Source: Bosea beijingensis (lineage in GTDB: Bacteria > Pseudomonadota > Alphaproteobacteria > Rhizobiales > Beijerinckiaceae). From it: 64,000 nucleotides of DNA. The notes under the pieces are model-generated. The model was not told the origin of the DNA. It made no database searches and saw only the letters and a list, made by a program, of their open reading frames with translations. The position numbers and the translations under genes are program-made. Location of the stretch: positions 822,811 to 886,810 of the forward strand of contig NZ_CP132359.1 in assembly GCF_030758975.1 (NCBI RefSeq). The letters are read 5' to 3'. Positions within the stretch are counted from its first letter, which is position 1. Every line of letters begins with the position of its first letter. This document shows, piece after piece, positions 13,533-30,597 of the stretch.

Positions 13533-14621
13533 TCAGGTCTCGCCGCTGATCGCCTGTGCCTTGATCTGCGAAGGCGGGCGGCCGAAGCGCTTCCGGAAGC
13601 AGCGGTTGAAATAGGAGAGATCACCGAAGCCGACCTCATAGGCGACGGCGCTGATGGTCAGGTTCCCCGCTTCCGCCGTGACCAGCCGATGCCAGGCGCG
13701 ATCAAGCCGGCGCTCCAGGACATAGTCGGAGAAGGTCCGCCCCTCGGCCTCGAACAGCTTCTGGACGACGCGGATGCTGACGCCGTGCAGGGACGCGATC
13801 ATCTCGACGCCGAGTTCGCGCCGCTCCAGCCGCGCCTCGATATCGGCCTTGATCGCGGCGAGGCGACCGGCCCGCCGATCTGCCATCGCAGCCGGCGCCG
13901 CGGGCTCGCGATCCGAGAGGGCCGCGCCGATGAGATCGTGGACATGGGCCTTGGCGAGGGCCTGAAGCTCCGCGGAGTTCAACGGCAGCAGGCCGCGCAG
14001 CAGGAGCGCGCCGTAATGCGCCAGCGCCTGCAAGCCCGGATTCGAGCGCGGGATGACCTGCATCAGCCCAGCATCGTCCACAAGCGATGGCAGCAAGGCC
14101 AAGTCCAGTTCGATCACATCGATGCGGCCGGGCTGGGCCAAGACGAACTCGGTCGGCTGGTCGAGAGCGAACACCGCCGCCTCGCGGGCACGCAGCGCGA
14201 TGCGGCGGTCACCTTGACGGATCACCACCCGTCCCTCGGCCGGACGAACGAGGCAATAGCGCGCGCCCTCCTCGCCCTGCCCCCGCTGCCAGGTCCAATG
14301 CGAAGCCGGCGCGAAGCAGGAGCGCAGGCCGATATCGGGACGCGTGGTCAGCACGCAGCGGGCGTCGAAAGGCAAGGGCAGATCGGGCGCTGCGGCTTCG
14401 CGGGCCACGTTACGGCCGAGGATGCGCCGCGACAGCGTGCTCGCCTCGTCGCGGCCGACATCGGCGGAGACCAGCCAGAACGGCACGAAATTTCGCGCTT
14501 CCGGCGCGGCCTCCAGGCCAAGGCGTGTCGCGACAGCCACATCTCCCGTTTTCGACACCGGATTCGTCTCAGTCCTATAGCGCGTTCGCGGGTGTCCAAG
14601 CTTACACCGCAGAAACATCAT
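13533..14621 (-). CDS. AraC-family transcriptional regulator
   Basis: Up to 362 residues: an N-terminal cupin-like ligand domain (AraC_binding_2 type, about 25-220) and a C-terminal pair of helix-turn-helices (about 265-355) with AVAYEVGFGDLSYFNRCFRKRFG, positions about 328-350. It is divergent from the TonB receptor at 14805, which is followed by an RhtX/FptX-like permease; this is the arrangement of siderophore-sensing AraC activators such as PchR or RhrA, so ferri-siderophore sensing is the likely role. The ATG at 14621 has no obvious Shine-Dalgarno, and a GTG about 20 codons in may be the true start. Confidence 0.85.
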   Translation of the reverse strand: MMFLRCKLGHPRTRYRTETNPVSKTGDVAVATRLGLEAAPEARNFVPFWLVSADVGRDEASTLSRRILGRNVAREAAAPDLPLPFDARCVLTTRPDIGLRSCFAPASHWTWQRGQGEEGARYCLVRPAEGRVVIRQGDRRIALRAREAAVFALDQPTEFVLAQPGRIDVIELDLALLPSLVDDAGLMQVIPRSNPGLQALAHYGALLLRGLLPLNSAELQALAKAHVHDLIGAALSDREPAAPAAMADRRAGRLAAIKADIEARLERRELGVEMIASLHGVSIRVVQKLFEAEGRTFSDYVLERRLDRAWHRLVTAEAGNLTISAVAYEVGFGDLSYFNRCFRKRFGRPPSQIKAQAISGET

Positions 14622-14687
14622 TACAGCAACAACTGAAATCGATCACGGATCTCACCAAAGATCGAATCCGCAATGAAATCAAGCTAC

Positions 14688-14704
14688 TTTACTATAATTC
14701 TAAA
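14688..14704. promoter_or_regulatory. Candidate iron-control (Irr/ICE-like) site upstream of the siderophore receptor
   Basis: TTTACTA-N3-TTCTAAA lies in the AT-rich gap between the AraC and receptor genes. The right half is a good Irr ICE half-site and the left half matches at five of seven positions. This is a similarity by eye; an Irr weight matrix would decide it. Confidence 0.3.
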
Positions 14705-14804
14705 GAACGAATTCTCAAGCTCTCCAAGTAAATCGTCACCCGTTCGGCATCGGCACCGCGCCCAACACATGGGCATGCCGCGGCCGGCGCCGCCGGATAG
14801 AACC

Positions 14805-17072
14805 ATGACCAGACCGATCAGCCTCGCCACCAGCCTCGTTGCCCTCCTCGCCTCCTCGATGGCGGTCGCGCAGGTTTCGCCACAGTCCGGCAGCCCTGCT
14901 GCATCGGGCCGCACCGCAACCGCGCCGACCACGATCGATCTCGACACCATCACGGTGACCGCCGCCCGCGCCGAACGCAGCTCGGCCGAGACGCCGCAAT
15001 CCATCCAGGTCATCGACCGGACGGAGATCGAGCAGCAGATGAAATTCAGCCCCAATGCCGCTGCCGCGCTCGGCAAGCTGGTGCCGGGCTATTCGATGTC
15101 GACGCAGACGGTCTCCAGCGCCTCGGAGAACTATCGCGGCCGCGACCTCCTGGTGATGATCGACGGCGTGCCGATGAACACGCCGTTGCGCGATGTCTCG
15201 CGCATCCTCTCGCTGATCGACCTCAACACGGTGGAACGGATCGAACTCGTCGCCGGCGCATCCAGCTTGTACGGCGCAGGCGCCACCGGCGGCACGGTCA
15301 ACTTCATCACGAAGAAGGCGGCCGAGGGCAAGCCGCGCGTCACGGTCAACACCGCAATCCGCGGCTTCACCCAGAACATCGGGCGCTCGCTGGCGCCGGA
15401 AGCCTCGGTGACGGTCTCCGGCAAGGTGCCTGACGGGATCGACTACCTGTTCTCCGGCCAGATCCGCGGCGCGGGCCGTACCTATGACGGCGCCGGTCGC
15501 GAACTGCCTTCCGACGGCCTGCTCGGCCAGGGCGGCGGCGACCGCTACAAAGCCGGGAACCTGCTCGCCAAGCTCGGCTACGATTTCGCCGGGGGCAAGC
15601 GCATCGAGTTCAACGCCTCCTGGATCGGTTTCGACCAGGACCCGAAATACCTGACCAATTATGCCGCGCCCTTCGCCCGGCCGGACCGGACGAAGCTCTA
15701 TACCGGCGAAAGTGTGCTGGAAGACACCAAATCCGTGTCGCTACGCTATAGCGACGCCGATTTCGCGCTCGGCAAGCTCAGCCTGCTCGGCTACTACAAC
15801 GACATCAAGAAGCGCTTCAATTACTCGACCTTCTCCTACCCCTACAATTCGCAGGTCTACTACTCCTTCAACCCGCTCTCGCCGACGAGCCGGGACAACC
15901 AGACCACGCTCTATTCGCAGCGCGGCGGCCTGAACGCCACGATCGACACATCCCTCGACGCGATCCTGCCCGGCGCCAAGCTGACCTGGGGCGGCGACCT
16001 GATCCAGGAGAAGACCTGGCAGACCCTGACCAGCGGACAGGATGTCTTCACGCCGCTGAAGCAGACGACGGCGGCCGGCTTCGGCCAGCTCCAGATCCCG
16101 ATCGGCGAGCGCGTCGTGCTGCGCGGCGGCCTGCGCTACGAGCATTTCTCGCTCTCGGTGAACGACTATACCCGCCCGGCCGCCTATGCTGCGGTGGCCG
16201 CCAACAACGCGCAGGGCTACCAGGCGTTCGTGCTGCCGGCGCTGCGCGTGCTCGGCGGCGATTTCGACTATTCGGCGCTGACCGCCAATCTCGGCGCGAC
16301 GATCAAGCTCTCCGAGACGAGCGAGATCTTCGGCGGCTTCTCGCAAGGCTTCGCTCTGCCGGATGTCGGCGCCTTCACCCGTCGCGCCGGCATCTCGACG
16401 CAATATGCCTGCCCGGTGCAGCTCCCGAACTGCCTGCCGGCCAACCGCCAGACGATCAGCTATTCGGCAATCGCGCCGAAAGCGCAGATCGTGAACAATT
16501 ACGAGCTCGGCATCCGCGGCAGCTATGACCGCTTCAAGGGCTCGCTGACCGGCTTCGTCAGCACCTCCGACGACGGCGTCACCTTCGATTCCGTGACCAA
16601 CACGATGTCGCAGCAGAAGGAGCGGATCTGGGGCGTCGAGGCGACCGGCGACGTCACCATCACCGACGCCTTCACCATGGGCACGGTCCTGTCCTGGCGC
16701 GAGGGCCGCTACGACACCAACGGCGACGGCCGGCTCGACAGCAACCTGCCGAACAACCGCATCGGCTCGCCCTGGCGCGGCATGCTCTATGGCAGCTACC
16801 GCTTCGTGAACGGCATGCAGTTCCGCGTCGAGGGCGAGGCGTTCTCGGACCGCGACGTCGCGATCGACCTGCGCGGCACCCGCTACAAGCTGAAGGGCGC
16901 GGCGACGATGAACGTCGCGCTGACCGCCCCGGTCTGGGAGGGCGAGGCCTATGTCGCGGTCAACAACCTGTTCGACCGCGCCTACCAGAACCCGACCGCG
17001 ACCTCGGTGCGCAACCTGCCGAACTATGGCTGGGGCCGCACCGTCACCCTCGGCTTCCGCAAGACCTTCTGA
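14805..17072 (+). CDS. TonB-dependent siderophore receptor
   Basis: A 755-residue outer-membrane receptor. ATG 14805 gives a clean signal peptide (MTRPISLATSLVALLASSMA, cut after VAQ). A TonB-box-like DTITVTA follows (about residue 46), then the plug domain with ELVAGASSLYGAGATGGTVN (about 149-168), then the 22-strand barrel ending in the typical C-terminal aromatic (TLGFRKTF). It would import a ferric chelate with TonB energy. Neighbours are a divergent AraC regulator and, downstream, a small cytosolic protein and an RhtX/FptX-like inner-membrane permease, making a minimal uptake set without siderophore biosynthesis genes. Ligand unknown. Confidence 0.9.
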   Translation: MTRPISLATSLVALLASSMAVAQVSPQSGSPAASGRTATAPTTIDLDTITVTAARAERSSAETPQSIQVIDRTEIEQQMKFSPNAAAALGKLVPGYSMSTQTVSSASENYRGRDLLVMIDGVPMNTPLRDVSRILSLIDLNTVERIELVAGASSLYGAGATGGTVNFITKKAAEGKPRVTVNTAIRGFTQNIGRSLAPEASVTVSGKVPDGIDYLFSGQIRGAGRTYDGAGRELPSDGLLGQGGGDRYKAGNLLAKLGYDFAGGKRIEFNASWIGFDQDPKYLTNYAAPFARPDRTKLYTGESVLEDTKSVSLRYSDADFALGKLSLLGYYNDIKKRFNYSTFSYPYNSQVYYSFNPLSPTSRDNQTTLYSQRGGLNATIDTSLDAILPGAKLTWGGDLIQEKTWQTLTSGQDVFTPLKQTTAAGFGQLQIPIGERVVLRGGLRYEHFSLSVNDYTRPAAYAAVAANNAQGYQAFVLPALRVLGGDFDYSALTANLGATIKLSETSEIFGGFSQGFALPDVGAFTRRAGISTQYACPVQLPNCLPANRQTISYSAIAPKAQIVNNYELGIRGSYDRFKGSLTGFVSTSDDGVTFDSVTNTMSQQKERIWGVEATGDVTITDAFTMGTVLSWREGRYDTNGDGRLDSNLPNNRIGSPWRGMLYGSYRFVNGMQFRVEGEAFSDRDVAIDLRGTRYKLKGAATMNVALTAPVWEGEAYVAVNNLFDRAYQNPTATSVRNLPNYGWGRTVTLGFRKTF

Positions 17073-17076
17073 CGCC

Positions 17077-17454
17077 ATGGTCAGCCTCGAGATCGATGCG
17101 GATGCGGTGGTGACGCTGCGCTTCATGCAGCCCTACGATCCGCAAGATGAGCGCGCCTATCTCGACGCGCTCCATCAGATCGGCCAGCGCGAGGAGCCCT
17201 ATACGCTGCTGACGATCTTCGGCGGCGGGCGGGCCCTCTCGCAGGCGGGCGAGCGCGAGCAGGCGCTCTGGTTCAAGGCGACGCGGGATCGGGTCTCGCA
17301 GGCGTGCCGGGCCTGTGCGATCGTGCGACCCGATGCCAGCGAGAAGACCGCCGAAATCTTCCGCCGGCTCTGGCCGTTCCCGATCGTCGCCGAGCGGGAG
17401 GAGGCTGTCGGGCGTGCCTTCCTGCTGAGCCAGTACAGCGGAACAAGGCCATGA
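17077..17454 (+). CDS. Small conserved protein, possibly STAS/SpoIIAA-like
   Basis: A 125-residue soluble protein with no signal peptide or membrane segment. Its start lies four bases after the receptor stop, and its stop overlaps the permease ATG (ATGA). The pattern (an early beta strand, a LLTIFGGG strand, a helix with AGEREQALWFKATRDRV, a CRACAIV strand and the terminal AVGRAFL helix) recalls small SpoIIAA/STAS-like proteins, but I do not recognise a named family. Being sandwiched between receptor and permease suggests a role in handling or sensing the imported ferri-siderophore; this is inference. Confidence 0.7.
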   Translation: MVSLEIDADAVVTLRFMQPYDPQDERAYLDALHQIGQREEPYTLLTIFGGGRALSQAGEREQALWFKATRDRVSQACRACAIVRPDASEKTAEIFRRLWPFPIVAEREEAVGRAFLLSQYSGTRP

Positions 17455-18722
17455 GCAGCGCGACGGAGCCCCTAAGCATGCCGGCCGCGCTCGCGCCGGG
17501 CCAACGCTACCGGCTCTTCGCCGTGCTGGGCGGCTTGTATCTGGCGCAGGCGATCCCGTCCTATCTCTTCGTCGCGGCATTGCCGCCGATCATGCGCGAG
17601 CTCGGGGTCTCGCGCACGGCGATCGGCGCGATGAGCATCCTGCTCCTGCCGCTCGTGCTGAAATTCATCTGGGCGCCCTGGGTCGACCGCATCCGCCCCT
17701 TCGCGCGGGCGCATCGCGCCGGCTGGGTTTTCATCACCCAGAGCCTGACGATCCTCGCGATCCTCGCCCTGATCATGGTCGGGCCGACCGAGGTCAACGC
17801 GATCATCGCGATCGGCTTCGTCGCCTCGCTGCTGATCTCGACGCAGGACATCGCGACCGACGGCTATGCCGCGAAATACCTGCCGGAAGCGGACCGCGCC
17901 ATCGGCAACGCGATCCAGGGCGGCTCGGTCGCCTTCGGCGTCGTCATCGGTGGCACGCTCGGCCTCGTTCTCTACCATCATATCGGCTGGACCGGGATGC
18001 TGGTGACCATCGCCGCGATCTCGCTGCTGCCCCTGGTCGCAGCCGCGATGATGCGGGAGAACGATCCGGTGCCGGGCGCCGCGCCTGCACCGCGTCCGTC
18101 GATCCGCGCCTTCCTGAAGCGCCCGGAAGCGCGCCAGATCCTGTGGATCGCCCTGACCTACCGGGCGAGCGAAGGGCTCGTGAAGGCGATGGAGGGCTCG
18201 TACCTGGTCGATGCCGGCATCCCGCTCGACCAGATCGGTTATCTCTCCGGCCTCTCGGCGACGACCGCGGGGCTTGCCGGCTCTGCCATCGCAGCCTGGA
18301 TGGTGAAGCGGCAGGGCCTGTCCTTCGTGCTCGCCCTGCTCGGCGGAATGCGGACGGTCTGCTTCGCGCTCTTCGCGGCCCATGCACTCGGCGCGGTCGT
18401 CGGGGTCTGGCCGCTGTTCGGTGCGGCCGGATTCCAGACGCTGATCCGCTACATGGAGATCGTCGCGCTCTATTCGCTGTTCATGGCGGTGACGACCTCG
18501 GACCAGCCCGGGACGGACTTCACCATCCTCGCCTGCGCGCAATTGCTGGTCTATCTCGCGGGCTCGATGCTGGCCGGCAAGCTTGCCGACGCGATGGGCT
18601 ACGGCGTCCTGTTCTCGCTGGCGACGGCGATCTCCGCCATCGCCGTGATCGCGACGGTCCGGATGCTCTCCCAGGCGAAGATCATGCAGTCGTCAGCCAC
18701 AGGAACGATCAAAGCCGGCTGA
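17451..18722 (+). CDS. MFS permease of the RhtX/FptX/AmpG type, putative siderophore importer
   Basis: A 423-residue membrane protein with about twelve hydrophobic segments. LYLAQAIPSYLFVAALPPIM (about residues 30-49) and QDIATDGYAAKYLP (about 138-151) are hallmarks of the AmpG/RhtX branch. RhtX and FptX carry intact siderophores (rhizobactin 1021, pyochelin) across the inner membrane with a single polypeptide. Placement directly behind a TonB receptor and an AraC regulator favours that role over AmpG-type muropeptide import. The ATG overlaps the stop of the small upstream gene. Substrate unproven. Confidence 0.82.
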   Translation: MSSATEPLSMPAALAPGQRYRLFAVLGGLYLAQAIPSYLFVAALPPIMRELGVSRTAIGAMSILLLPLVLKFIWAPWVDRIRPFARAHRAGWVFITQSLTILAILALIMVGPTEVNAIIAIGFVASLLISTQDIATDGYAAKYLPEADRAIGNAIQGGSVAFGVVIGGTLGLVLYHHIGWTGMLVTIAAISLLPLVAAAMMRENDPVPGAAPAPRPSIRAFLKRPEARQILWIALTYRASEGLVKAMEGSYLVDAGIPLDQIGYLSGLSATTAGLAGSAIAAWMVKRQGLSFVLALLGGMRTVCFALFAAHALGAVVGVWPLFGAAGFQTLIRYMEIVALYSLFMAVTTSDQPGTDFTILACAQLLVYLAGSMLAGKLADAMGYGVLFSLATAISAIAVIATVRMLSQAKIMQSSATGTIKAG

Positions 18723-21490: not shown

Positions 21491-21597
21491 AAAGGTGGTT
21501 TGAAGCCGCTGTCATGCCGGCAATGCGCTGCGGCGCTGGTCAATCCCGGCGAAGCCTGCTTTCTGGATTGCTCAGCCGTCTCAGGGCGCAGAATCAG

Positions 21598-22146
21598 ATG
21601 CCGAATGCCTTGGCCGAGCGCCCGAGCGCGCTGCAACTCTTCCTGATCTTCGCGCGGATCGGATTGACCAGCTTCGGCGGCGGCCTGAGCGGCTGGATGC
21701 TGCGGGAATTCGTGCAGCGGCGGCGGCTGATGAGCGAGGACGATTTCCTCAACGGGCTCTCGGTCGCGCAGGCCCTGCCCGGCGTCAACGTCACCAATAT
21801 GGCGATCTGGATCGGCTACAAGCTCGGCGGACGCAACGGCGCCATCGCCTCCTGGCTCGGCATCGTGGTGCCGGCCGCCTTCGTCATCGTGCTGATCGGC
21901 AGCGTCTTCGCCTCGCTCAGCGGCTATGAACTCAGCCATGTCGCGCTCAGCGGCGCGGCCGCCGCGGCGATCGGCCTTTCGCTTGCGATGGGGCTGACCG
22001 CGGCGCGACGGGTGCCGCGCCGCGTGTTCCCGCTCGCGATCATGGCCGCGACCTTCGTCGCCGTCGCCATCCTGAAATGGCCACTGCTCTGGACCGTGCT
22101 CGGCTTCGGCTCGCTCAGCGTCGCCGTGACCTATCGCGACGGTTGA
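21598..22146 (+). CDS. Chromate transporter, N-terminal-type CHR protein
   Basis: A 182-residue membrane protein of the short-chain CHR family, which exports chromate as a pair of single-domain proteins. It carries LTSFGGGLSGWMLREFV (about residues 23-39) and AQALPGVNVTNMAIWIGYKLGG (positions about 58-79), the CHR signature regions, plus five or so hydrophobic segments. Start ATG 21598 begins a plausible short cytosolic leader. Its partner lies at 22218. Some CHR pairs have no proven chromate activity, so the substrate is a family-level statement. Confidence 0.85.
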   Translation: MPNALAERPSALQLFLIFARIGLTSFGGGLSGWMLREFVQRRRLMSEDDFLNGLSVAQALPGVNVTNMAIWIGYKLGGRNGAIASWLGIVVPAAFVIVLIGSVFASLSGYELSHVALSGAAAAAIGLSLAMGLTAARRVPRRVFPLAIMAATFVAVAILKWPLLWTVLGFGSLSVAVTYRDG

Positions 22147-22165
22147 GCGTTTTTTTGCTTCAGAC

Positions 22166-22210
22166 GCATTTTCTTCACGCGAACCGGTGCCCACTTCGCT
22201 CGAAAATACT
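22166..22210 (+). repeat. Dispersed 45-bp repeat, copy A
   Basis: Aligns without gaps to 39571-39615 with 35 of 45 identical bases; the shared core is CGCGAACCGGT. It sits in the gap between the two chromate-transporter genes, ending seven bases before the second ATG, so it occupies the place of a Shine-Dalgarno. Confidence 0.6.
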
Positions 22211-22217
22211 TCAGGCC

Positions 22218-22754
22218 ATGCAATCCCTGCCTTTCAGCCTCCTGCTGGTCTTTCTGCCGCTCTCGCTGGTCACCATCGGCGGCGGCCAGAGCGCCATCGC
22301 CGACATGCACCGGCAGATCGTCGAGGTGCATCAGTGGATGAGCGCCGCGCAATTCGTCGATGCCTTCGCGATCGCTCGGCTGGCGCCGGGGCCGGGCTCG
22401 CTGCTGGCGACGCTGATCGGCTGGCAGATCGCCGGGTTCTGGGGCGCGATCGCCGCCACCGCCGGCATCTTTGGGCCGACGGCGTTCCTGATCTACGGGG
22501 TCGCCCATATCTGGTCGCGCTATGAGGGCGCCCGCCTGCTGCGCGCGCTCGAGAAGGGCCTGCGGCCTGTCGCGGCAGGCATGATCCTCGCGGCAAGCTA
22601 TGTGCTGATCCAGTCGCTCGACAGCGGCTGGCTCGGCCGGGCCATCGCGCTCATCTCGACTGCCCTGCTGATGCTGACGCCTGTCAATCCGTTGCTGCTG
22701 ATCGCGACAGGTGCCGGCTGCTTCGTCGGGCTGCATCTGCTGGCGCTGATCTGA
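22218..22754 (+). CDS. Chromate transporter, C-terminal-type CHR protein
   Basis: A 178-residue partner of the CHR protein at 21598. VTIGGGQSAIADMHRQIV (about residues 18-35), the RLAPGPGSLLATLIGWQIAG stretch (positions about 54-73) and GPTAFLIYG are family signatures, followed by hydrophobic segments to the end. ATG 22218 is the only start that puts the first membrane segment at the N-terminus; the frame is open upstream only through the repeat. A clear Shine-Dalgarno is missing, so expression may be weak or coupled to the first gene. Confidence 0.85.
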   Translation: MQSLPFSLLLVFLPLSLVTIGGGQSAIADMHRQIVEVHQWMSAAQFVDAFAIARLAPGPGSLLATLIGWQIAGFWGAIAATAGIFGPTAFLIYGVAHIWSRYEGARLLRALEKGLRPVAAGMILAASYVLIQSLDSGWLGRAIALISTALLMLTPVNPLLLIATGAGCFVGLHLLALI

Positions 22755-22991
22755 TCGCCGTTCACGGCATTCAGCCTGAATGGCCATTCATTCGCCGCAG
22801 CGATATCGAACAAACGCCCGATCAATTTGTCCAAAAGCACTTTACACGGCAATTTATTGTACTAATTATATTGTATAGACTGCGTTCTTTTGAATTGTAT
22901 TAATTATTATATTATCGGTCTAGCAAGAATCAACTTGCGAATCTTTTCACGAAACTATTAGACGCCCCAGACATAGGACTGGGGTTACGTA
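22755..22991 (+). promoter_or_regulatory. AT-rich promoter region of the heme-uptake locus
   Basis: No gene lies here. The middle (about 22850-22920) is strikingly AT-rich against a GC-rich background. TTTACA (22841-22846) and AATTAT (22864-22869) are 17 bases apart and could be a promoter. A 13-bp direct repeat, ATTGTACTAATTA (22856-22868) and ATTGTATTAATTA (22894-22906), is spaced 38 bases start to start and could bind an iron regulator. The regulator cannot be named from sequence. Confidence 0.45.
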
Positions 22992-25241
22992 ATGAATAAT
23001 AATTCCAAGCTGGCTTTCCTGGCGGCACTGCTGTCGACGACGGCCCTTTCGATGGCTCAGGCACAGACGCCGCAAGCCAACGGCAACACTGCCGAACAGG
23101 CGATCTCGCTCGATCAGATCACGGTCACCGCGACGCGCGGCGAAAAACAGGTGCTCGATGTTCCCGGCACCGTCAGCGTGATCACGCGGCAGGATCTAGA
23201 GCAGCGGATCACCCGCGATACGCAGGACCTCGTGCGCTACGAGCCGGGCGTTATCGTCAATCGCCAGACCTCCGGCACCGATCCGTTCGGCAATTATGGC
23301 GGCTTCACAATCCGCGGCGTCGGCGGCAACCGCGTGCAGATGCAGGTCGACGGTTCGCGCGTGATCGAGCGCATCACCGACGGCAACCGCGACTTCGTCG
23401 ACCTGCCCTTCCTCAAGAATGTCGAGATCGTGCGCGGCCCGGGCTCGGTGCTGTGGGGCGCGGATGCACTCGGCGGCATCGTCGCCTACCGCACGCTCGA
23501 CCCGCAGGACCTGCTCAAGGGCCGCAAGGACAAGCCCTGGGCAGTCAAGCTGGACACGAGCTATGACAGCTTCGACCGCTCCCTGGTGAAGACCGGCGTC
23601 GCGGCCTACAGCTTCTCGCCCGCCTTCGAGGCGATCGTCGGCGTAAGCCACCGCACGGCGCAGGAGGGCAAGCTGAGCAAGGCCCGCGCCGATGGCGGGC
23701 GCTGGGGCTGCCCGGTGCCGACCCTGCGCTTCCTGGGCTGCAACCAGCTCAATCCCCTCGACACCGAGGTGTGGAACGCCTTCGGCAAGCTCGTCTTCAA
23801 GCCATCTGCCGACCATACGATCAAGCTGACCGGCGAGTATTTCGACAACGATACCAAGGTGAACCAGCTCTGGGACTACAATGTCGTGAGCCTCGGCACC
23901 CGCAACGGCGCCTATATCCGCGACCAATCCAAGAGCCGCCAGCGCATCGCGATCGAACATGAATGGCAGGCGGGTCTGAGCTTCCTCGACTCCGTCCGCT
24001 GGCAGGCCTCGTTCTCCCCGCAGGAGCGCGAAATCATCAACAACCGCCTGCAGACGCTCTCGAACGGCCAGCAGCGCTTCACGCGCGGCCTGCTCGACTA
24101 CAAGGAGCGCTTCTCGCAGCTCGATATCCAGGCGAAGTCGAGCTTCGCGCTGGGTCCGACCTTCCACCGCCTGACCTATGGATTCCAGGGCGACGTCACG
24201 CGCACCGACTACAAGCGCCGCGACGACGTCCGGAACATGACGACCGGCGTGACCACCACGACGATCGCGGGCGGCTTCAACTTCGCCAATGCCACGACGA
24301 CGCGCTACGATTTCTACCTGCAGGACGAGATCGAGCTCATGAACGGGCGCTGGACGATCACGCCGGGCCTTCGCTACGCCAATTACAACATCGATCCGCG
24401 CATCGGGCAGGGTTACGTCATCGTGCCCGGCAAGGCGCCGCGCGAACTCGACTCGCACCGGGTGATCCCGCAGGTCGGCACGCTCTTCAAGCTCGACGAA
24501 ACCTATTCGCTCTATGCCCGCTATGCCGAAGGCTTCAAGATGCCGACAGCGCAGCAGCTCTACACCTCGCTGCCCTTCGGTACCCAGAATCTGATCCCCA
24601 ACCCGGACCTGCGCCCGGAGAAGGTGAAATCCTACGAAGCCGGCCTGCGTGGCCGCTTTGCCGATGGCTGGTTTTCGCTCGGCGCCTTCCATGCCGATTA
24701 CAAGGACTTCATCCAGGAGCTCTACGAGGTGCCCGGCACCACCGACATCACCTCGCGCAACCTGTCGCGGGTGAAGATCTCCGGCATCGAGGCCTCGGCC
24801 GAATGGCGCTTCCATGACCGCTGGGTCAGCCATCTCGCCGTCAGCTACCAGTACGGCAAGCAGCGCAAGGAACAGGGCTCACCCATCGTTCCCTACAATA
24901 TCAGCCCGCTGAAGGCCGTCGCCGGCCTGAAATACCTGATGCCGGAATACGGGCTGGAAGCCGAAGTGATCGGCACCTTCGCAGCCGGCGCGACGCGCGC
25001 GGATGCTCCGACCACGTCCAAGCCCGGCGGCTATTCGGTGTTCGATGCCTATCTGAACTGGAAGCCGACGAGCTACATCACGGTGCGCGGCGGCGTGCAG
25101 AACATCTTCGACCGGCGCTATTTCGCGGATGTGCTGAATTACTCCAAGACGGCAACCCTAGCGACCGCAGCGACCAATCCGCTGGAACTGCAGACGGCGC
25201 CGGGACGCACCTTCAAGCTGGCGGCTTCCATCGAGTTCTGA
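22992..25241 (+). CDS. TonB-dependent hemoglobin/heme-type receptor
   Basis: A 749-residue outer-membrane receptor: signal peptide (about 1-24, cut near AQAQ), TonB-box-like DQITVTATRG (about 41-50), plug domain with EIVRGPGSVLWGADALGG (about 148-165), barrel, and terminal Phe. The order FKMPT (about residue 516) followed by NPDLRPE (about 537) corresponds to the FRAP/NPNL boxes of heme and hemoglobin receptors. No His lies between these boxes, where HemR-type receptors carry a heme-binding His, so the ligand may differ or be bound otherwise. The next genes encode HmuS-like and ChaN-like proteins, supporting heme. Confidence 0.87.
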   Translation: MNNNSKLAFLAALLSTTALSMAQAQTPQANGNTAEQAISLDQITVTATRGEKQVLDVPGTVSVITRQDLEQRITRDTQDLVRYEPGVIVNRQTSGTDPFGNYGGFTIRGVGGNRVQMQVDGSRVIERITDGNRDFVDLPFLKNVEIVRGPGSVLWGADALGGIVAYRTLDPQDLLKGRKDKPWAVKLDTSYDSFDRSLVKTGVAAYSFSPAFEAIVGVSHRTAQEGKLSKARADGGRWGCPVPTLRFLGCNQLNPLDTEVWNAFGKLVFKPSADHTIKLTGEYFDNDTKVNQLWDYNVVSLGTRNGAYIRDQSKSRQRIAIEHEWQAGLSFLDSVRWQASFSPQEREIINNRLQTLSNGQQRFTRGLLDYKERFSQLDIQAKSSFALGPTFHRLTYGFQGDVTRTDYKRRDDVRNMTTGVTTTTIAGGFNFANATTTRYDFYLQDEIELMNGRWTITPGLRYANYNIDPRIGQGYVIVPGKAPRELDSHRVIPQVGTLFKLDETYSLYARYAEGFKMPTAQQLYTSLPFGTQNLIPNPDLRPEKVKSYEAGLRGRFADGWFSLGAFHADYKDFIQELYEVPGTTDITSRNLSRVKISGIEASAEWRFHDRWVSHLAVSYQYGKQRKEQGSPIVPYNISPLKAVAGLKYLMPEYGLEAEVIGTFAAGATRADAPTTSKPGGYSVFDAYLNWKPTSYITVRGGVQNIFDRRYFADVLNYSKTATLATAATNPLELQTAPGRTFKLAASIEF

Positions 25242-25286
25242 ACCCTGTTCGAGACGCCGGACGCCAAAAGCGCGGCGGATCAGCGG

Positions 25287-25310
25287 CGCCCCGGTCGAGA
25301 CCCCGGGGCG
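25287..25310. other. Intercistronic hairpin after the heme receptor gene
   Basis: CGCCCCGG and CCGGGGCG flank an 8-base loop. There is no T-run, so it is more likely a stability or attenuation element that keeps receptor expression above that of downstream genes than a full terminator. Confidence 0.35.
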
Positions 25311-25333
25311 TCGCAACCCTTTTGGAGACCATC

Positions 25334-26089
25334 ATGAGCAACGAGACCAATCCGCGCGAGAAATTCGCGCAGTCGCCGGCCGAAATCCTGCAAAGCCTGC
25401 CCGGCATGGGCCGCGTCATGCTCAGCACCCGCTCCGGCGGCGCGACCCATGAGCGGATGGGCGCGGTCGAGACCGTGACCATCGCCGGCAACGAGGCCCG
25501 CCTCTCCGGCGCCTTCCACGACAGCCGCATCGACCTCACCACGATCGTCAGCATCGTCGCCGACCGGACCAGCAAGATGCGCGAGCGCGTGCTGCCGCGC
25601 CTGGAATGCCAGGATGCGTCCGGCGAGACCCTGTTCAGCCTGATCGGGCTCGACGGGCTGGAGCCTTTCGACAAGGCGCTCGAACCGTTCGGCGCCGGCG
25701 AGACGCTGGAGCCGGTCCAGCGCGAGGCACCGGGCAGCGGCGGCGGTTCCGCCGATGTGCCGGAAGACGATCTCGGCGCCCGCAGCTTCGCGGCGATCCT
25801 TGCCAGTGGCGAGGCGATCGCGATCGATGTCGAGCGTGCCGGCCTGTTCCAGCACTGGCAGGGCGCCCTGCCCGAGCCGAAGCCGGCGATGGGCTTCGTC
25901 AACATCATGCAGGGCGATTTCCACCTGCATCTCAAGGCGGGCGCTGTCTCCGGCTGGGAGCGGACCGAAAGCGAGGGAAGCGTCGCTCTTCATGCCCGCG
26001 ACAGCGAGGGCAAGAGCTTCGGCCTCGTCCTGCGCGGCCCGGCTGCCGCCTTTGCAGAGGTCCCCAATGTCGATGTCATCAGCGGCTGA
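25334..26089 (+). CDS. HmuS/HutX-like heme-handling protein
   Basis: A 251-residue cytosolic protein beginning at an ATG with GGAG eight bases upstream. The first half (about 25-120), with GRVMLSTRSGGATHERMG, a central acidic strand region and TLFSLIGLDG, resembles the repeat unit of HmuS/ChuS and HutX proteins, which carry or degrade heme. The second half (about 150-245), with FHLHLKAGAVSGW, looks like a second, degenerate unit. It is about 100 residues shorter than classical HmuS. It lies between the receptor and a ChaN-like gene whose start it overlaps. Heme function is inferred from weak similarity plus context. Confidence 0.6.
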   Translation: MSNETNPREKFAQSPAEILQSLPGMGRVMLSTRSGGATHERMGAVETVTIAGNEARLSGAFHDSRIDLTTIVSIVADRTSKMRERVLPRLECQDASGETLFSLIGLDGLEPFDKALEPFGAGETLEPVQREAPGSGGGSADVPEDDLGARSFAAILASGEAIAIDVERAGLFQHWQGALPEPKPAMGFVNIMQGDFHLHLKAGAVSGWERTESEGSVALHARDSEGKSFGLVLRGPAAAFAEVPNVDVISG

Positions 26090-26966
26090 ACCGGCACCGA
26101 TGGGCGCGACCTTCGCCCATCCGCGCGCGACATGGCTTTGCCCGAACACGGGCAGGCTGCTGGCGCAAGGCGAACTGATGCAGGCGATGGCGCGAAAGCG
26201 CGTCGTCCTGCTCGGCGAGACGCATGACGTCGCCGAGATCCATCGCTGGCAGCTTCATGTCACGACCTGCCTGCATCTGCTGCGGCCACAGATGGCGGTG
26301 GGCTTCGAGATGTTCCCGCTGCGCATCCAGCCGGTGCTCGACGCCTGGGTCGCGGGCGAGATGGACACCGCGAGTTTCATCGAGCGCAGCGAATGGGCAC
26401 AGGTCTGGGGCTTCGATCCCGAACTCTACCTGCCGCTGTTCCATTTCTGCCGGCAGCAGCGCGTGAAGATGCTGGCGCTGAACTGCCATCGCCCGCTGGT
26501 CACGCGGGTCGGACAGGTCGGCTGGGAGGCGATCCCGGTCGAGGAGCGCGATGGCGTCACGCCGTCTGCGCCCGCAACGGAAGGCTATCGCGCCTATCTC
26601 GCTGCCATCACCGGCCGGTTCAGCGGAGCGGCCAAGCCGGAGGCGATGGCGCCGGAACGCTTCGACCGCTTCGTGCGAGCGCAGCAGTGCTGGGACCGCT
26701 CCTTCGCCTGCCGCGTCGCCGATCATCTCGCTGGGGCCAAAGACGATCCGCTGGTCGTCGGCATCATCGGGCGCGGTCATCTCGAATACGGCCATGGTAC
26801 GCCGTTCCAGCTCCGCGATCTCGGCATCGAGGATGTCGCGGTGCTGCTACCGGCCACCGATGCGGCGCCTGAAGCGGAGCCACTCGCCGGCATCGCCGAC
26901 GCGCTGTTCCGGCTCGATACGCCCGAGCCACCGCAATCGCGACGGACACCGCGAGCCGCGTCATGA
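26067..26966 (+). CDS. ChaN-family heme-binding protein
   Basis: A 299-residue ChaN/DUF399 protein. VVLLGETHDVAEIHRWQ (about residues 50-66), VGFEMFPLRIQP and the final VVGIIGRGHLEYGHG (about 232-246) are the family's conserved boxes. ChaN of Campylobacter is an iron-regulated lipoprotein that binds stacked hemes; this one shows no lipobox or signal peptide and would be cytosolic. The start at 26067 has AGAGG seven bases upstream and overlaps the previous gene; ATG 26100 is an alternative. It overlaps the next ABC gene (ATGA). Confidence 0.8.
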   Translation: MSMSSAAEPAPMGATFAHPRATWLCPNTGRLLAQGELMQAMARKRVVLLGETHDVAEIHRWQLHVTTCLHLLRPQMAVGFEMFPLRIQPVLDAWVAGEMDTASFIERSEWAQVWGFDPELYLPLFHFCRQQRVKMLALNCHRPLVTRVGQVGWEAIPVEERDGVTPSAPATEGYRAYLAAITGRFSGAAKPEAMAPERFDRFVRAQQCWDRSFACRVADHLAGAKDDPLVVGIIGRGHLEYGHGTPFQLRDLGIEDVAVLLPATDAAPEAEPLAGIADALFRLDTPEPPQSRRTPRAAS

Positions 26967-28699
26967 GGGCCGTGCTCTCCCAGATCATCGGGCTGACCCG
27001 GCTTTGCATCGCCGGGCCGGGCGGCAAGGTCGGCGCGCTCTATTTCCTGATGATCTTCGGGCTCGGGCTAGCCGGAGTTCAGGTCGGCGTGCGCCTGATC
27101 TCCTGGACCGCGGATTTCTACAACGCCCTGCAGAAGCTCGATGTCGACGGCGCGCTCAGGCAGATCGCGATCTTCTTCGGGCTGATCGCGATCAGCGTCT
27201 GCATCCATCTTGCCAGCGCCTATCTGCGCAAGATGCTGCAGATTCGCTGGCGGCGCGCGCTGACCGAGGCCGCGCTCGACCGCTGGCTCGCCGGCAAGGC
27301 CTATTGGCACATGCGCGAGCGAACGGATCACGGGCTCGACAATCCCGACCAGCGCATCGCCGAGGATTGCCGCATCTTCGTCGAGAAGCTCACGGTCGAA
27401 GGGCTCGAGCTCGCCACGAACATCGTCGCGCTGGTGACCTATGTCTCGATCCTGTGGTCGCTCTCGACCTTCGCGCTGTCCTTCACCCTGTTCGGCCATG
27501 CCATCGAAATCCCGCGCTACATGGTCTGGGCTGCACCGCTCTATGTGGCCATCGCGACCTTCATCACGCATGGCCTCGGCCGTCCGCTGAAGGCGCTGAC
27601 GGTCGAGCAGCAGCGACGTGAAGCCGATTTCCGCTTCTCGCTGGTACGCCTGCGCGAACATGTCGAGGGCGTGGCACTGGCCGATGGCGAGCCGGCGGAG
27701 CGGCGGCTGTTGCGCAAGCGCTTCGGTGCGATCGCCGGGAATTGGCAGAAGCTCGCCAATCGAGAGCTGATCCTCGGCTTCTTCACGCGCCCCTATTTCC
27801 AGACCGTGCTGCGCATCCCGCTCTTCCTGGCGCTGCCGGCCTTTCTCGCCGGGCGCGTCACCTTCGGCGGCCTGATGCAGATCGGCTCGGCCTTCCAGAA
27901 CGTGGTGACGACGCTGTCCTGGTTCGTCTTCTCCTATCGCGACCTGACCGATCTCGCCGCGGCCGCGAGCCGCCTCTCGCATTTCATGAAGGCGGCCGAA
28001 AACGCGGCCACGCCGGCAAGCGGCCCAGCGATGCACAAGGCGGGCAATGCGGAGTTGCGGCTGCGCGACCTCGTGCTCGCAACACCTGCGGGACGCCGCC
28101 TCCCACCCGTCCCGAACCTGAAGCTGGAGGCTGGCGGCAGCTATTGGCTCGCGGCACCCTCCGGCCATGGCAAGAGCACGCTGGCGAAGGCGATCGCCGG
28201 GCTCTGGACGCATGGCGAAGGTCGGATCGAGCGGCCGGCAGGACGGATGCTCGTCCTGCCGCAGCAACCTTATCTGCCGCTCGGGAGCCTGCGCGCCGCG
28301 CTGGCCTATCCGCTATCGCCGGAAGCCATCGACGATGCGACCTTGCGCCAGGCGCTCGCCACCGTCGAGCTGGAGGAGCTCTGGTCGCTCGACGAGGACG
28401 GCTGGACGGACAAGCGGCGCGGGCTCTCCGGCGGCGAGCAGCAACGCTTCGCACTGGCACGTGCGCTGTTGCAGGCGCCCGACTGGCTCGTGCTCGACGA
28501 AGCGACGAGCGCGCTCGATTTGGAATCCGAGGCGCAATTACTGGCTGCATTGCGCCAATCGCTGCCTGACAGCACGCTGGTCCTGATCGCACATCGTGCG
28601 CCGCAAGGGCTGGGCTCGCTCCAGATGATCGAGTTGAGGAAGCCGCGGCTGGAAGCAGCGACCGCCCCTGCCTTTGCACTGGCCGAGCCGGTAAGCTGA
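26963..28699 (+). CDS. ABC transporter with SbmA/BacA-type membrane domain fused to an ATPase
   Basis: A 578-residue half-transporter. The membrane domain has about six hydrophobic segments; WTADFYNALQKLD (about residues 48-60) and DNPDQRIAEDCR (about 129-140) are hallmarks of the ABC_membrane_2/SbmA-BacA group. The ATPase follows: Walker A PSGHGKST near residue 399, signature LSGGEQQRF near 488, Walker B VLDEATSALD near 507. This fold can import, as with Mycobacterium Rv1819c for cobalamin and SbmA for peptides. Behind a heme receptor, HmuS-like and ChaN-like genes it may be the inner-membrane importer, since no HmuTUV is present. This is inference. Confidence 0.85.
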   Translation: MRAVLSQIIGLTRLCIAGPGGKVGALYFLMIFGLGLAGVQVGVRLISWTADFYNALQKLDVDGALRQIAIFFGLIAISVCIHLASAYLRKMLQIRWRRALTEAALDRWLAGKAYWHMRERTDHGLDNPDQRIAEDCRIFVEKLTVEGLELATNIVALVTYVSILWSLSTFALSFTLFGHAIEIPRYMVWAAPLYVAIATFITHGLGRPLKALTVEQQRREADFRFSLVRLREHVEGVALADGEPAERRLLRKRFGAIAGNWQKLANRELILGFFTRPYFQTVLRIPLFLALPAFLAGRVTFGGLMQIGSAFQNVVTTLSWFVFSYRDLTDLAAAASRLSHFMKAAENAATPASGPAMHKAGNAELRLRDLVLATPAGRRLPPVPNLKLEAGGSYWLAAPSGHGKSTLAKAIAGLWTHGEGRIERPAGRMLVLPQQPYLPLGSLRAALAYPLSPEAIDDATLRQALATVELEELWSLDEDGWTDKRRGLSGGEQQRFALARALLQAPDWLVLDEATSALDLESEAQLLAALRQSLPDSTLVLIAHRAPQGLGSLQMIELRKPRLEAATAPAFALAEPVS

Positions 28700-28737
28700 G
28701 CGCAGATGAGTCGCCTGCCCTTTTCGTCAGCCTCCTG

Positions 28738-30597
28738 ATGACCGTTCCCTCGCTTTCCAAGGCGGCCGCCGCGCTTCGGCGGCGCCTGGCGCTTTGGCAG
28801 GACGTGCCGCGGCTGCTGCGCTCGCTCTGGCAGACCAGCCCGCGCCTCTTAGCGGCAATCGCGGCCTTGCGCCTGCTGCGCGCGCTCCAGCCGCCGGCGA
28901 TGCTCTTCGTCGGCAAGCTGATCATCGACGAGATCGTGCTTCAGACGCGAACGCCGGCGCCCGGGCCGGCCCTGTCGGACTGGCTGGAGAGCGGCCGGGC
29001 TTCGGCATTGGCTGGCTGGATCCTGCTGGAATTCCTGCTGGTCGCCGGCGGCAACACCCTCAACCGGCTGGGGACGCTGGTCGAGGGCCTGTTATCCGAG
29101 CGCCACGGCTTCGCGATGGGCGCCCTGCTCGTCGAGCGCGCGGCCGAGCTCGATCTCCGGGATATCGAAGGCGCAGTGGCGCAGGACAAGCTGCAACGCG
29201 CCAATGCCGCGACGATGCTCGGCTATCAGCTCGTGACCAATCTCCTCACGCAGGCCCAGAACGGCGTGACGCTGCTCGCGCTGCTGGCCGGCCTCGTGCT
29301 CTTCGTGCCCTGGCTAATCGTGCTGCTGCTCGTCGCACTGCTGCCGACCTTGCTGGTCGAGGCGCATTTCAATGCCCGGCAGTACGAAGCGGCCACGGCG
29401 CTGATCCCGGAACGGCGGCGCCTCAACTACCTCCAGCATGTCGGCTCCTCCACGCATGCGGCGAAGGAAGTGAAGCTGTTCGGCCTCGGCAGCTATATCG
29501 CCGGCCTGCTGCGGGAGGTCGCGGAGCGCATCATCGCCACCAACCGCCGGCTGGCCGTGCGGCGCGCCACCTGGAGCAGCCTGTCAGGGGCGATCGGCTC
29601 GCTCGCCTATTACGCGGCCTATGCCGTAGTCGCCTGGCGGGCACTCACGGGCCAACTCAGCATCGGCGACCTGACCTTCCTGGCGGGCTCGCTGATGCGG
29701 CTCAACGGGCTGTTCGAAGGGCTGATCGTCGGCCTCTCGCAGATCACCTCGCAGGCCCAGTATCTCGGCGATCTCTATGCCTTCCTCGACATGCGCTCGA
29801 CCGTGGCGCCTCCGGCGCATCCGCGCGCCTTTCCCGCGCCCCTCCGGCAGGGCGTCGTCTTCGAGGATGTCGGATTCCGCTATCCCGGCAAGCCGGACTG
29901 GGCCTTGCGCCATCTCAGCTTCACCCTGCCGGCCGGCGAAACGCTCGCGCTCGTCGGCGAGAACGGCGCCGGCAAGACCACGATCGTCAAGCTGCTGACG
30001 CGGCTTTACGAGCCCGACGAAGGCCGCATCCTGATCGACGGCATCGATATCCGCGATATCCCGCTGCCGGACTTGCGCGAGCATGTCGGCGCGATTTTCC
30101 AGGATTTCATGCGCTACAACCTGACGGCCTCCGAGAATATCGGCGTCGGCCGGGTGGTGCGGATCGGCGAGCGGCCGGCGATCGTCGAAGCTGCCCGCAA
30201 GAGCCTCGCCGATCCCGTTATCGCTGCCCTGCCAGAGTCTTACGACCAGATGCTCGGACTTGGATTCCAGAGCGGACTCGATCTCTCGGGAGGGCAATGG
30301 CAGAAGATCGCCATCGCGCGGGCCTATTTCCGCGACGCCGCGATCCTGATCCTCGACGAGCCGACCGCCGCGCTCGATGCCCGCGCCGAGGCCGAGATCT
30401 TCGAGCGCTTCCGCCACCTCACCACCGGCAAGACGACGCTGCTGATTTCGCACCGCTTCTCGACGGTGCGCATGGCCGATCGCATTCTCGTGCTGGAGAA
30501 CGGCGCGATCCTCGAACAGGGAAGCCATACCGAGCTGATGGCGCAGGACGGCCGCTATGCCGAGCTTTTCAAGCTGCAGGCTGCCGGATTCCAGTAG
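28738..30597 (+). CDS. ABC transporter, fused exporter-type membrane domain and ATPase
   Basis: A 619-residue type-IV ABC half-transporter. The N-terminal region has six hydrophobic segments; the ATPase has Walker A GENGAGKTT near residue 406, Q-loop FQDFMRYN, signature LSGGQWQKIAIARA near 516, Walker B ILILDEPTAALD near 536 and the H-loop in LISHRFSTV. It starts 38 bases after the previous ABC gene. The two could form a heterodimer, as with IrtAB or YbtPQ, exporter-fold proteins that import ferri-siderophores; alternatively this is an independent exporter. The sequence does not decide direction. Confidence 0.85.
   Translation: MTVPSLSKAAAALRRRLALWQDVPRLLRSLWQTSPRLLAAIAALRLLRALQPPAMLFVGKLIIDEIVLQTRTPAPGPALSDWLESGRASALAGWILLEFLLVAGGNTLNRLGTLVEGLLSERHGFAMGALLVERAAELDLRDIEGAVAQDKLQRANAATMLGYQLVTNLLTQAQNGVTLLALLAGLVLFVPWLIVLLLVALLPTLLVEAHFNARQYEAATALIPERRRLNYLQHVGSSTHAAKEVKLFGLGSYIAGLLREVAERIIATNRRLAVRRATWSSLSGAIGSLAYYAAYAVVAWRALTGQLSIGDLTFLAGSLMRLNGLFEGLIVGLSQITSQAQYLGDLYAFLDMRSTVAPPAHPRAFPAPLRQGVVFEDVGFRYPGKPDWALRHLSFTLPAGETLALVGENGAGKTTIVKLLTRLYEPDEGRILIDGIDIRDIPLPDLREHVGAIFQDFMRYNLTASENIGVGRVVRIGERPAIVEAARKSLADPVIAALPESYDQMLGLGFQSGLDLSGGQWQKIAIARAYFRDAAILILDEPTAALDARAEAEIFERFRHLTTGKTTLLISHRFSTVRMADRILVLENGAILEQGSHTELMAQDGRYAELFKLQAAGFQ

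What the first reader, a model, noticed from the sequence alone, without database searches (positions are those of the whole stretch)
22755..30597. Heme-type uptake locus built on two exporter-fold ABC proteins instead of HmuTUV
Seen: TonB receptor with FRAP/NPNL-like boxes, HmuS-like protein, ChaN-like protein, an SbmA/BacA-type fused ABC protein and a type-IV ABC half-transporter, all on one strand with overlaps or short gaps. Known: bacterial heme import normally uses HmuTUV, while IrtAB, YbtPQ and Rv1819c show that exporter-fold or SbmA-like ABC proteins can import. Inferred: these two ABC proteins may form a new inner-membrane route for heme or a heme-like chelate, with ChaN- and HmuS-like proteins receiving it inside. 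This is the best candidate here for an undescribed system.
Basis: partly seen in the sequence, partly recalled or inferred. Interest (0 to 1): 0.75.

Follow-up and report, generated by a model that had tools for sequence, protein, structure and literature searches.

The report
YddA-type ABC gene in heme-uptake operon
Besides its ordinary heme importer this bacterium carries a conserved gene set that pairs a hemoglobin receptor with a different kind of pump, one whose nearest solved relative imports vitamin B12, so it may be a second way of bringing heme into the cell.

Summary
The five genes are as described (22992-30597, + strand). The conserved core is a hemin/hemoglobin-type TonB receptor plus an SbmA/YddA-type fused ABC protein nearest to Rv1819c, usually with a shortened two-domain HemS ("mini-HemS") and a ChaN-like protein. 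Of 56 loci with relatives of this ABC protein, 52 have the same receptor type, three another hemin-type receptor, one is cut by a contig end; 45 have mini-HemS, 43 ChaN, 38 all four. None of 44 other SbmA-like loci has mini-HemS or ChaN. The heme-linked ABC proteins form one clade. The second ABC protein (ORF5) is not core: missing in 9 of 18 same-genus genomes with the module-type ABC gene and in 39 of 39 loci outside the genus. The genome also has hutX and hmuTUV, as do most module genomes, so "instead of HmuTUV" fails. Most likely: an additional heme (or heme-derived) import route through one, probably homodimeric, YddA-type transporter, parallel to Rv1819c standing in for BtuCD. Substrate and direction are inferred. 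New variant of a known kind; no description found in the open-access papers searched.

The parts
22850..22991 (+). AT-rich leader and probable promoter region, partly conserved in the closest relatives; no ICE (Irr-box) match here
22992..25241 (+). TonB-dependent receptor, hemoglobin/hemin type, FKMP-box subclass
   Evidence: TIGR01786 and TIGR01785 over cut-off; Met517 in 52 of 53 and His392 in 53 of 53 module receptors
25334..26089 (+). mini-HemS: shortened two-domain HemS/PhuS/ChuS-fold protein, predicted cytosolic
26073..26966 (+). ChaN-like protein (Tiki superfamily), no signal sequence seen
   Evidence: PF04187 188.6 bits; profile of five matches C. jejuni ChaN chain 2g5g at E 4.7e-8; GExHD, E76 and GxGH conserved
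26963..28699 (+). SbmA/YddA-type fused ABC transporter (ORF4), proposed inner-membrane step
   Evidence: Rv1819c 6tqe, E 6e-106; clade; signature residues; Foldseek best hit Rv1819c, TM 0.79
28738..30597 (+). MsbA/ABCB-like half-transporter (ORF5), optional neighbour, not part of the conserved core

Best explanation
This is a heme-uptake module in which a hemin/hemoglobin-type TonB receptor brings heme (or a heme-bearing breakdown product) into the periplasm, and a homodimeric YddA/Rv1819c-type fused ABC transporter carries it into the cytosol without a periplasmic binding protein. There mini-HemS and the ChaN-like protein, or in some members a HutZ/HugZ-like protein, receive or degrade it. 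In most genomes it works next to HmuTUV, as Rv1819c serves vitamin B12 uptake where BtuCD is missing. ORF5 is an optional neighbour. Shown here: gene content, conservation, clade, folds. Inferred: heme as substrate, import direction, homodimer, receipt by mini-HemS and ChaN.
For: Linkage: of 56 loci of the ABC clade (window not counted) 52 have the module receptor on the same strand; L033 and L038 have a receptor matching TIGR01785 below its cut-off (212.8, cut by the contig start, and 315.1 against 316.85), L055 one over the cut-off on the other strand; L126 is cut by a contig end. Mini-HemS in 45, ChaN in 43, HutZ/HugZ-like within 4.5 kb in 5, receptor + mini-HemS + ChaN + ABC in 38. Gene order differs between groups while content recurs. 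Control: 44 non-clade loci, 0 mini-HemS, 0 ChaN, 0 HugZ, 1 weak receptor hit. One clade, SH-aLRT 100. Partners are heme-protein folds or families. Nearest solved ABC protein: Rv1819c, needed for corrinoid uptake (PMC3603451, passages). ORF4 has complete ATP-site motifs, invariant in 25 aligned relatives. One genome (Roseovarius halotolerans, L056) has the four genes, no HmuV over cut-off, and a single FecCD permease near a receptor that best matches the B12 receptor model, though below its cut-off.
Against: No transport, binding or growth data. HmuTUV is present in most module genomes (HmuV over cut-off in 28 of 35; 18 of 18 in the genus), so a need for heme import alone does not explain retention. 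E. coli YddA, from the neighbouring group, is reported as a multidrug exporter (PMC9728188, abstract); its deletion lowered extracellular and raised intracellular uroporphyrin, though not in a tolC mutant (PMC11943725, passages), which points to export. Mini-HemS lacks the segment that carries the known axial histidine of HemS. ChaN is absent in 13 of the 56 loci and in 13 of the 19 found by mini-HemS. The nearness to the FusD/YddA rows has modest support (81). Of iron-regulator sites only the ICE pattern was searched, and it is not upstream of the operon.
Confidence: 0.58

Rival explanations
1. The YddA-type protein exports excess heme, porphyrin or degradation products and protects the cell while HmuTUV does the import.
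For: E. coli YddA is described as an exporter (PMC9728188, abstract) and affects uroporphyrin distribution (PMC11943725, passages); HmuTUV coexists in most module genomes.
Against: The nearest solved relative imports corrinoids (Rv1819c) and ABCD4 also handles cobalamin; the module repeats an uptake chain (receptor plus cytosolic heme-fold proteins), and one genome seems to have it without a dedicated HmuUV.
Confidence: 0.17
2. The module imports another ligand: a heme-peptide or globin fragment, another metal-tetrapyrrole, or a different iron chelate.
For: SbmA-like transporters carry peptides and Rv1819c corrinoids (PMC13316013 and PMC3603451, passages); the receptor subclass has FKMP in place of FRAP, and in the 36 of 53 receptors where my pattern matched there is no His between the two boxes; mini-HemS lacks the usual ligand segment; ChaN keeps its conserved GExHD/E/GxGH motifs, which would fit an enzyme (inference).
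Against: The window receptor and four of the six module receptors from other loci that I scanned score over a hemin or hemoglobin cut-off; L033 and L038 do not. HutZ/HugZ-like neighbours appear in distant members.
Confidence: 0.2
3. ORF4 and ORF5 form an IrtAB- or YbtPQ-like heterodimer.
For: Adjacent on one strand in 8 of the 18 same-genus genomes with the module-type ABC gene; in a ninth (G055) both genes end at contig ends.
Against: 9 of the 18 have no ORF5, one of them (L124) with only a 111-codon remnant; 0 of 39 loci outside the genus show it; two genomes have ORF5 without the module. ORF4 has complete ATP-site motifs of its own.
Confidence: 0.05

Closest known systems
Rv1819c (BacA-like ABC transporter of M. 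tuberculosis)
   Same: SbmA-like membrane domain fused to an ATPase; best sequence and fold match; an alternative to the BtuCD-type route for a metal-tetrapyrrole cofactor (PMC3603451, passages)
   Different: substrate corrinoids; no pairing with a TonB receptor or heme proteins known to me (recalled)
Fus ferredoxin-uptake system / E. coli yddAB-pqqL
   Same: TonB receptor gene in one operon with a fused YddA-type ABC gene, which is proposed to import a released cofactor (PMC5095587 and PMC6793856, passages); neighbouring rows in the tree
   Different: Fus has an M16 protease and a TonB-like protein; the module has HemS- and ChaN-like proteins and a hemin-type receptor
HmuRSTUV / HutX-HmuTUV heme uptake
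   Same: hemin-type receptor and a HemS-fold protein
   Different: binding protein, FecCD permease and separate ATPase are replaced by one fused SbmA-like ABC protein
Campylobacter jejuni ChaN (2g5g)
   Same: PF04187 family, shared motifs
   Different: C. jejuni ChaN is a lipoprotein (PDB name 'putative lipoprotein'; otherwise recalled); here no signal sequence is seen

Membership tests
YddA/Rv1819c-type (SbmA-like fused ABC) transporters | SbmA/BacA-ABC_membrane_2 domain fused to ABC_tran | tested here: met
   PF06472 162.4, PF05992 102.8, PF00005 64.7 bits; best fold match Rv1819c
YddA/Rv1819c-type (SbmA-like fused ABC) transporters | imports its substrate into the cytosol | not testable with these tools
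   needs a transport assay; direction is disputed for YddA
HmuTUV-type heme importer | Peripla_BP_2 protein, FecCD permease and separate ATPase in the locus | tested here: not met
   none among the eight window proteins scanned; none of the genome's six FecCD places lies in the window
Fus ferredoxin-uptake system | M16 protease and TonB-like protein with the receptor and ABC gene | tested here: not met
   neither among the eight window proteins scanned; an M16 profile hit none of the related module loci but L155 (32 bits, several kb away)
IrtAB/YbtPQ-like heterodimeric importer | two half-transporter genes kept together | tested here: not met
   ORF5 missing in 9 of 18 same-genus genomes and not seen in 39 of 39 outside loci, three of which hold under 1.5 kb behind the ABC gene
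HemS/HmuS/PhuS | two-domain HemS fold | tested here: met
HemS/HmuS/PhuS | axial heme histidine on helix alpha-7 (His196 in HemS; PMC6018153, passage) | tested here: not met
   HemS residues 181-229 are not covered by either aligned stretch; the conserved His are 39, 62, 197, 199; another residue could serve
ChaN | Cofac_haem_bdg domain | tested here: met
   PF04187 188.6 bits, cut-off 27.7
ChaN | lipoprotein signal | tested here: not met
   by eye: four annotated relatives and 15 of 44 N-termini printed, whose starts my script chose; no predictor was run
Hemin/hemoglobin TonB receptors | scores over the TIGR01785/TIGR01786 cut-offs | tested here: met
   340.8 and 379.9 bits

The most novel reading that the evidence does not exclude
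A clade of the YddA family, whose function is called unknown, is a dedicated heme importer that works without HmuTUV. It comes with its own receptor subclass (FKMP box), a HemS variant that has lost the segment with the known axial ligand, and a cytosolic ChaN, and is marked by Cys136, Pro277 and Phe323 (each in 56 of 56 heme-linked and 0 of 53 other sequences aligned).
Probability: 0.45. Interest if true: 0.75.

Novelty: new variant of a known kind. Interest (0 to 1): 0.6.

Why it matters
YddA-type ABC proteins are conserved among Gram-negative bacteria and mycobacteria and called 'of unknown function' (PMC13316013, passages). A clade tied to hemin receptors and heme-fold proteins makes their substrate and direction directly testable. 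If true, heme joins vitamin B12 as a metal-tetrapyrrole carried by SbmA-like ABC proteins, and surveys that look only for hmuTUV miss a heme route. Mini-HemS also raises the question how heme is held without the usual histidine.

Tried and rejected
Rejected: an ORF4-ORF5 pair as the core. Rejected: HmuTUV is missing. Of the seven module genomes without HmuV over the cut-off of 261 bits (L057 was not held) I keep only Roseovarius halotolerans (best 204.5 bits) as probably lacking a dedicated HmuUV. Both Labrys genomes, Pseudophaeobacter leonis and Oligella have FecCD matches of 231-345 bits beside HmuV-like genes of 232-251 bits, so probably have the system; Devosia 66-14 and the Azoarcus MAG are unclear. 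PF05171 gave no hit in R. halotolerans, but that search missed its mini-HemS too and so says little. Completeness of these assemblies was not given.

Led nowhere: the ICE pattern at the operon; its only window match (2 mismatches) lies at 14688, near another receptor gene. Aligned leaders of 17 same-genus loci showed an AT-rich conserved stretch in the closest few but no operator that I recognise. Paper searches for such a heme system (open-access PMC papers only; one search listed 15 of 30 papers, 12 of 3,473) showed no description. PMC5225302 (passages) describes an ordinary hmuTUV cluster. Structures of ORF5 and of dimers were not predicted.

Weak points. The tree is a quick one, with 26 of the 49 non-linked rows; a second SbmA paralogue in L024 was labelled 'heme' by my script, falls outside the clade and was counted as 'rest'. 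L123 repeats L023 and was dropped from counts; L132 was too short for the tree. HugZ-like genes were checked against NCBIfam in L033, L038 and L052 only; those in L030 and L054 rest on my two-sequence profile. Against the rule 'mini-HemS means module': eleven hits of 132-170 bits in one genus stand alone, three weak ones belong to HmuT/HmuU loci, one (L169) is a decayed module. Alignment A3 begins three codons behind the likely ChaN start.

Full report

HmuTUV exists. hutX (TIGR04108 175.2 bits, cut-off 110), a Peripla_BP_2 protein, a FecCD permease and a HmuV protein (NF010068 295.8 bits, cut-off 261) lie together at about 4.38 Mb of the same genome. A second receptor over the TIGR01786 cut-off lies at 3.32 Mb, with no hmu genes beside it that I could see by eye. 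In the genus 18 of 67 genomes have the module-type ORF4 and all 18 have HmuV over cut-off, as do 40 of the other 49. Of 35 module genomes reached through loci, 28 have HmuV over cut-off.

The core. In plasmids of Pannonibacter, Devosia, Rhizobium and Paracoccus the order is receptor, ABC, HemS-like, ChaN, with no second ABC gene in the annotation beside it. A scan of genome contigs with the ABC alignment kept 80 loci. Profile searches of the neighbourhoods and one count over 56 loci of the ABC clade, window excluded, give: module receptor on the same strand 52, mini-HemS 45 (44 on the same strand), ChaN 43, HutZ/HugZ-like 5, ORF5 7, and receptor, mini-HemS and ChaN together 38. The four loci without a module-receptor hit are L033, L038 and L055, which have other hemin-type receptors, and L126, where the contig ends. 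The 44 non-clade SbmA-like loci have 0 mini-HemS, 0 ChaN, 0 HugZ and one weak receptor hit. From the other side: a mini-HemS search of 397 genomes of the order found hits in 35. Eleven weaker hits in one genus stand alone, three belong to HmuT/HmuU loci, one is a decayed module. So receptor plus ABC gene is the firmest link, mini-HemS next, ChaN the loosest.

ORF5 is optional. In the genus (67 genomes) strong ORF5 hits (over 600 bits) are in 11: 8 next to ORF4, one (G055) with both genes at contig ends, two (G074, G048) without the module. Nine of the 18 genomes with the module-type ORF4 lack it, one of them (G037, L124) with a 111-codon remnant behind ORF4. Outside the genus 0 of 39 loci show it, three of them with under 1.5 kb behind the ABC gene. 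ORF4's ATP-site motifs are complete and invariant in 25 aligned sequences (S400-K404, L488-Q494, D512-E513, H544), so it does not need ORF5 to form two ATP sites.

Ancestry. In a quick maximum-likelihood tree of 87 ABC rows, 57 heme-linked rows form one group with SH-aLRT 100. Next to it, with 81, stand E. coli YddA, a Pantoea protein from a cluster with a receptor and an M16 protease gene, and a Klebsiella plasmid protein beside a siderophore-type receptor. E. coli yddA sits beside yddB and pqqL, the operon related to Fus (PMC5095587, passages). The nearest solved structure is Rv1819c by sequence profile (E 6e-106) and by fold (TM 0.79, 31% identity). Cys136, Pro277 and Phe323 are in 56 of 56 heme-linked (window included) and 0 of 53 other sequences.

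How it likely works. The receptor takes heme, from hemoglobin or free, into the periplasm (inferred from family). The ABC protein, as a homodimer without a binding protein, carries it inward (inferred; precedents: Rv1819c for corrinoids, PMC3603451, passages; FusD, proposed to carry an iron-sulphur cluster, PMC6793856, passages). Mini-HemS and ChaN receive it in the cytosol (inferred from fold, family and lack of signal sequences). Five of the 56 loci carry a HutZ/HugZ-like gene within 4.5 kb: two Gilliamella (L052, L054), Oligella (L038), Devosia (L030) and Mesorhizobium (L033). The proteins of L038 and L052 score 76.6 and 148.7 bits against a HutZ cut-off of 225, that of L033 52.7 against a HugZ cut-off of 240: relatives, not confirmed members. 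HutZ and HugZ relatives bind or degrade heme (PMC6018153, passages).

What stays open. Direction: E. coli YddA is reported as an exporter (PMC9728188, abstract) and its loss shifts uroporphyrin inward, though not in a tolC mutant (PMC11943725, passages). Need: HmuTUV is usually present; only Roseovarius halotolerans looks free of a dedicated HmuUV, its single FecCD permease lying near a receptor that best matches the B12 receptor model, below cut-off. Ligand chemistry: the HemS segment 181-229, which holds His196, has no aligned counterpart in mini-HemS, which keeps His39, His62, His197 and His199 (46, 44, 45 and 46 of 46).

Verdict. It is a conserved but patchy module (strong mini-HemS hit in 20 of 397 sampled genomes of the order, window's own included), a new variant of heme-uptake loci, and a concrete hypothesis for a family of unknown function.

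Noticed in passing
window 13533-18722: A second iron-type locus: an AraC-like regulator, a TonB receptor ending at 17072 with an ICE-like site at 14688-14704 (2 mismatches) before its likely start, and an MFS-like protein. Labels of regulator and MFS gene are recalled from the look of the sequence, not tested.
   Followed up: partly
window 21514-22754: Two overlapping half-length chromate-transporter genes (PF02417) directly upstream of the module.
   Followed up: no
L158-L168 (one genus of the order): Eleven stand-alone mini-HemS relatives (132-170 bits) without receptor, ABC gene or ChaN nearby; function unknown.
   Followed up: partly
L133 and L134: ORF5 relatives without the heme module; in L133 it follows an oligopeptide/nickel-type permease gene (Opp4C 261.8 bits, below cut-off), in L134 it lies near what looks like a peptide-type binding protein (by eye).
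   Followed up: partly
L124 6448-6780: 111-codon remnant of ORF5 just behind ORF4, pointing to loss of the optional gene.
   Followed up: no
L169: Decayed module: ChaN-like gene split over frames and a short mini-HemS piece.
   Followed up: no
L022 (Klebsiella variicola plasmid): SbmA-like fused ABC gene behind a siderophore-type receptor with sigma-70 and FecR-like genes: another receptor class paired with this ABC family.
   Followed up: no
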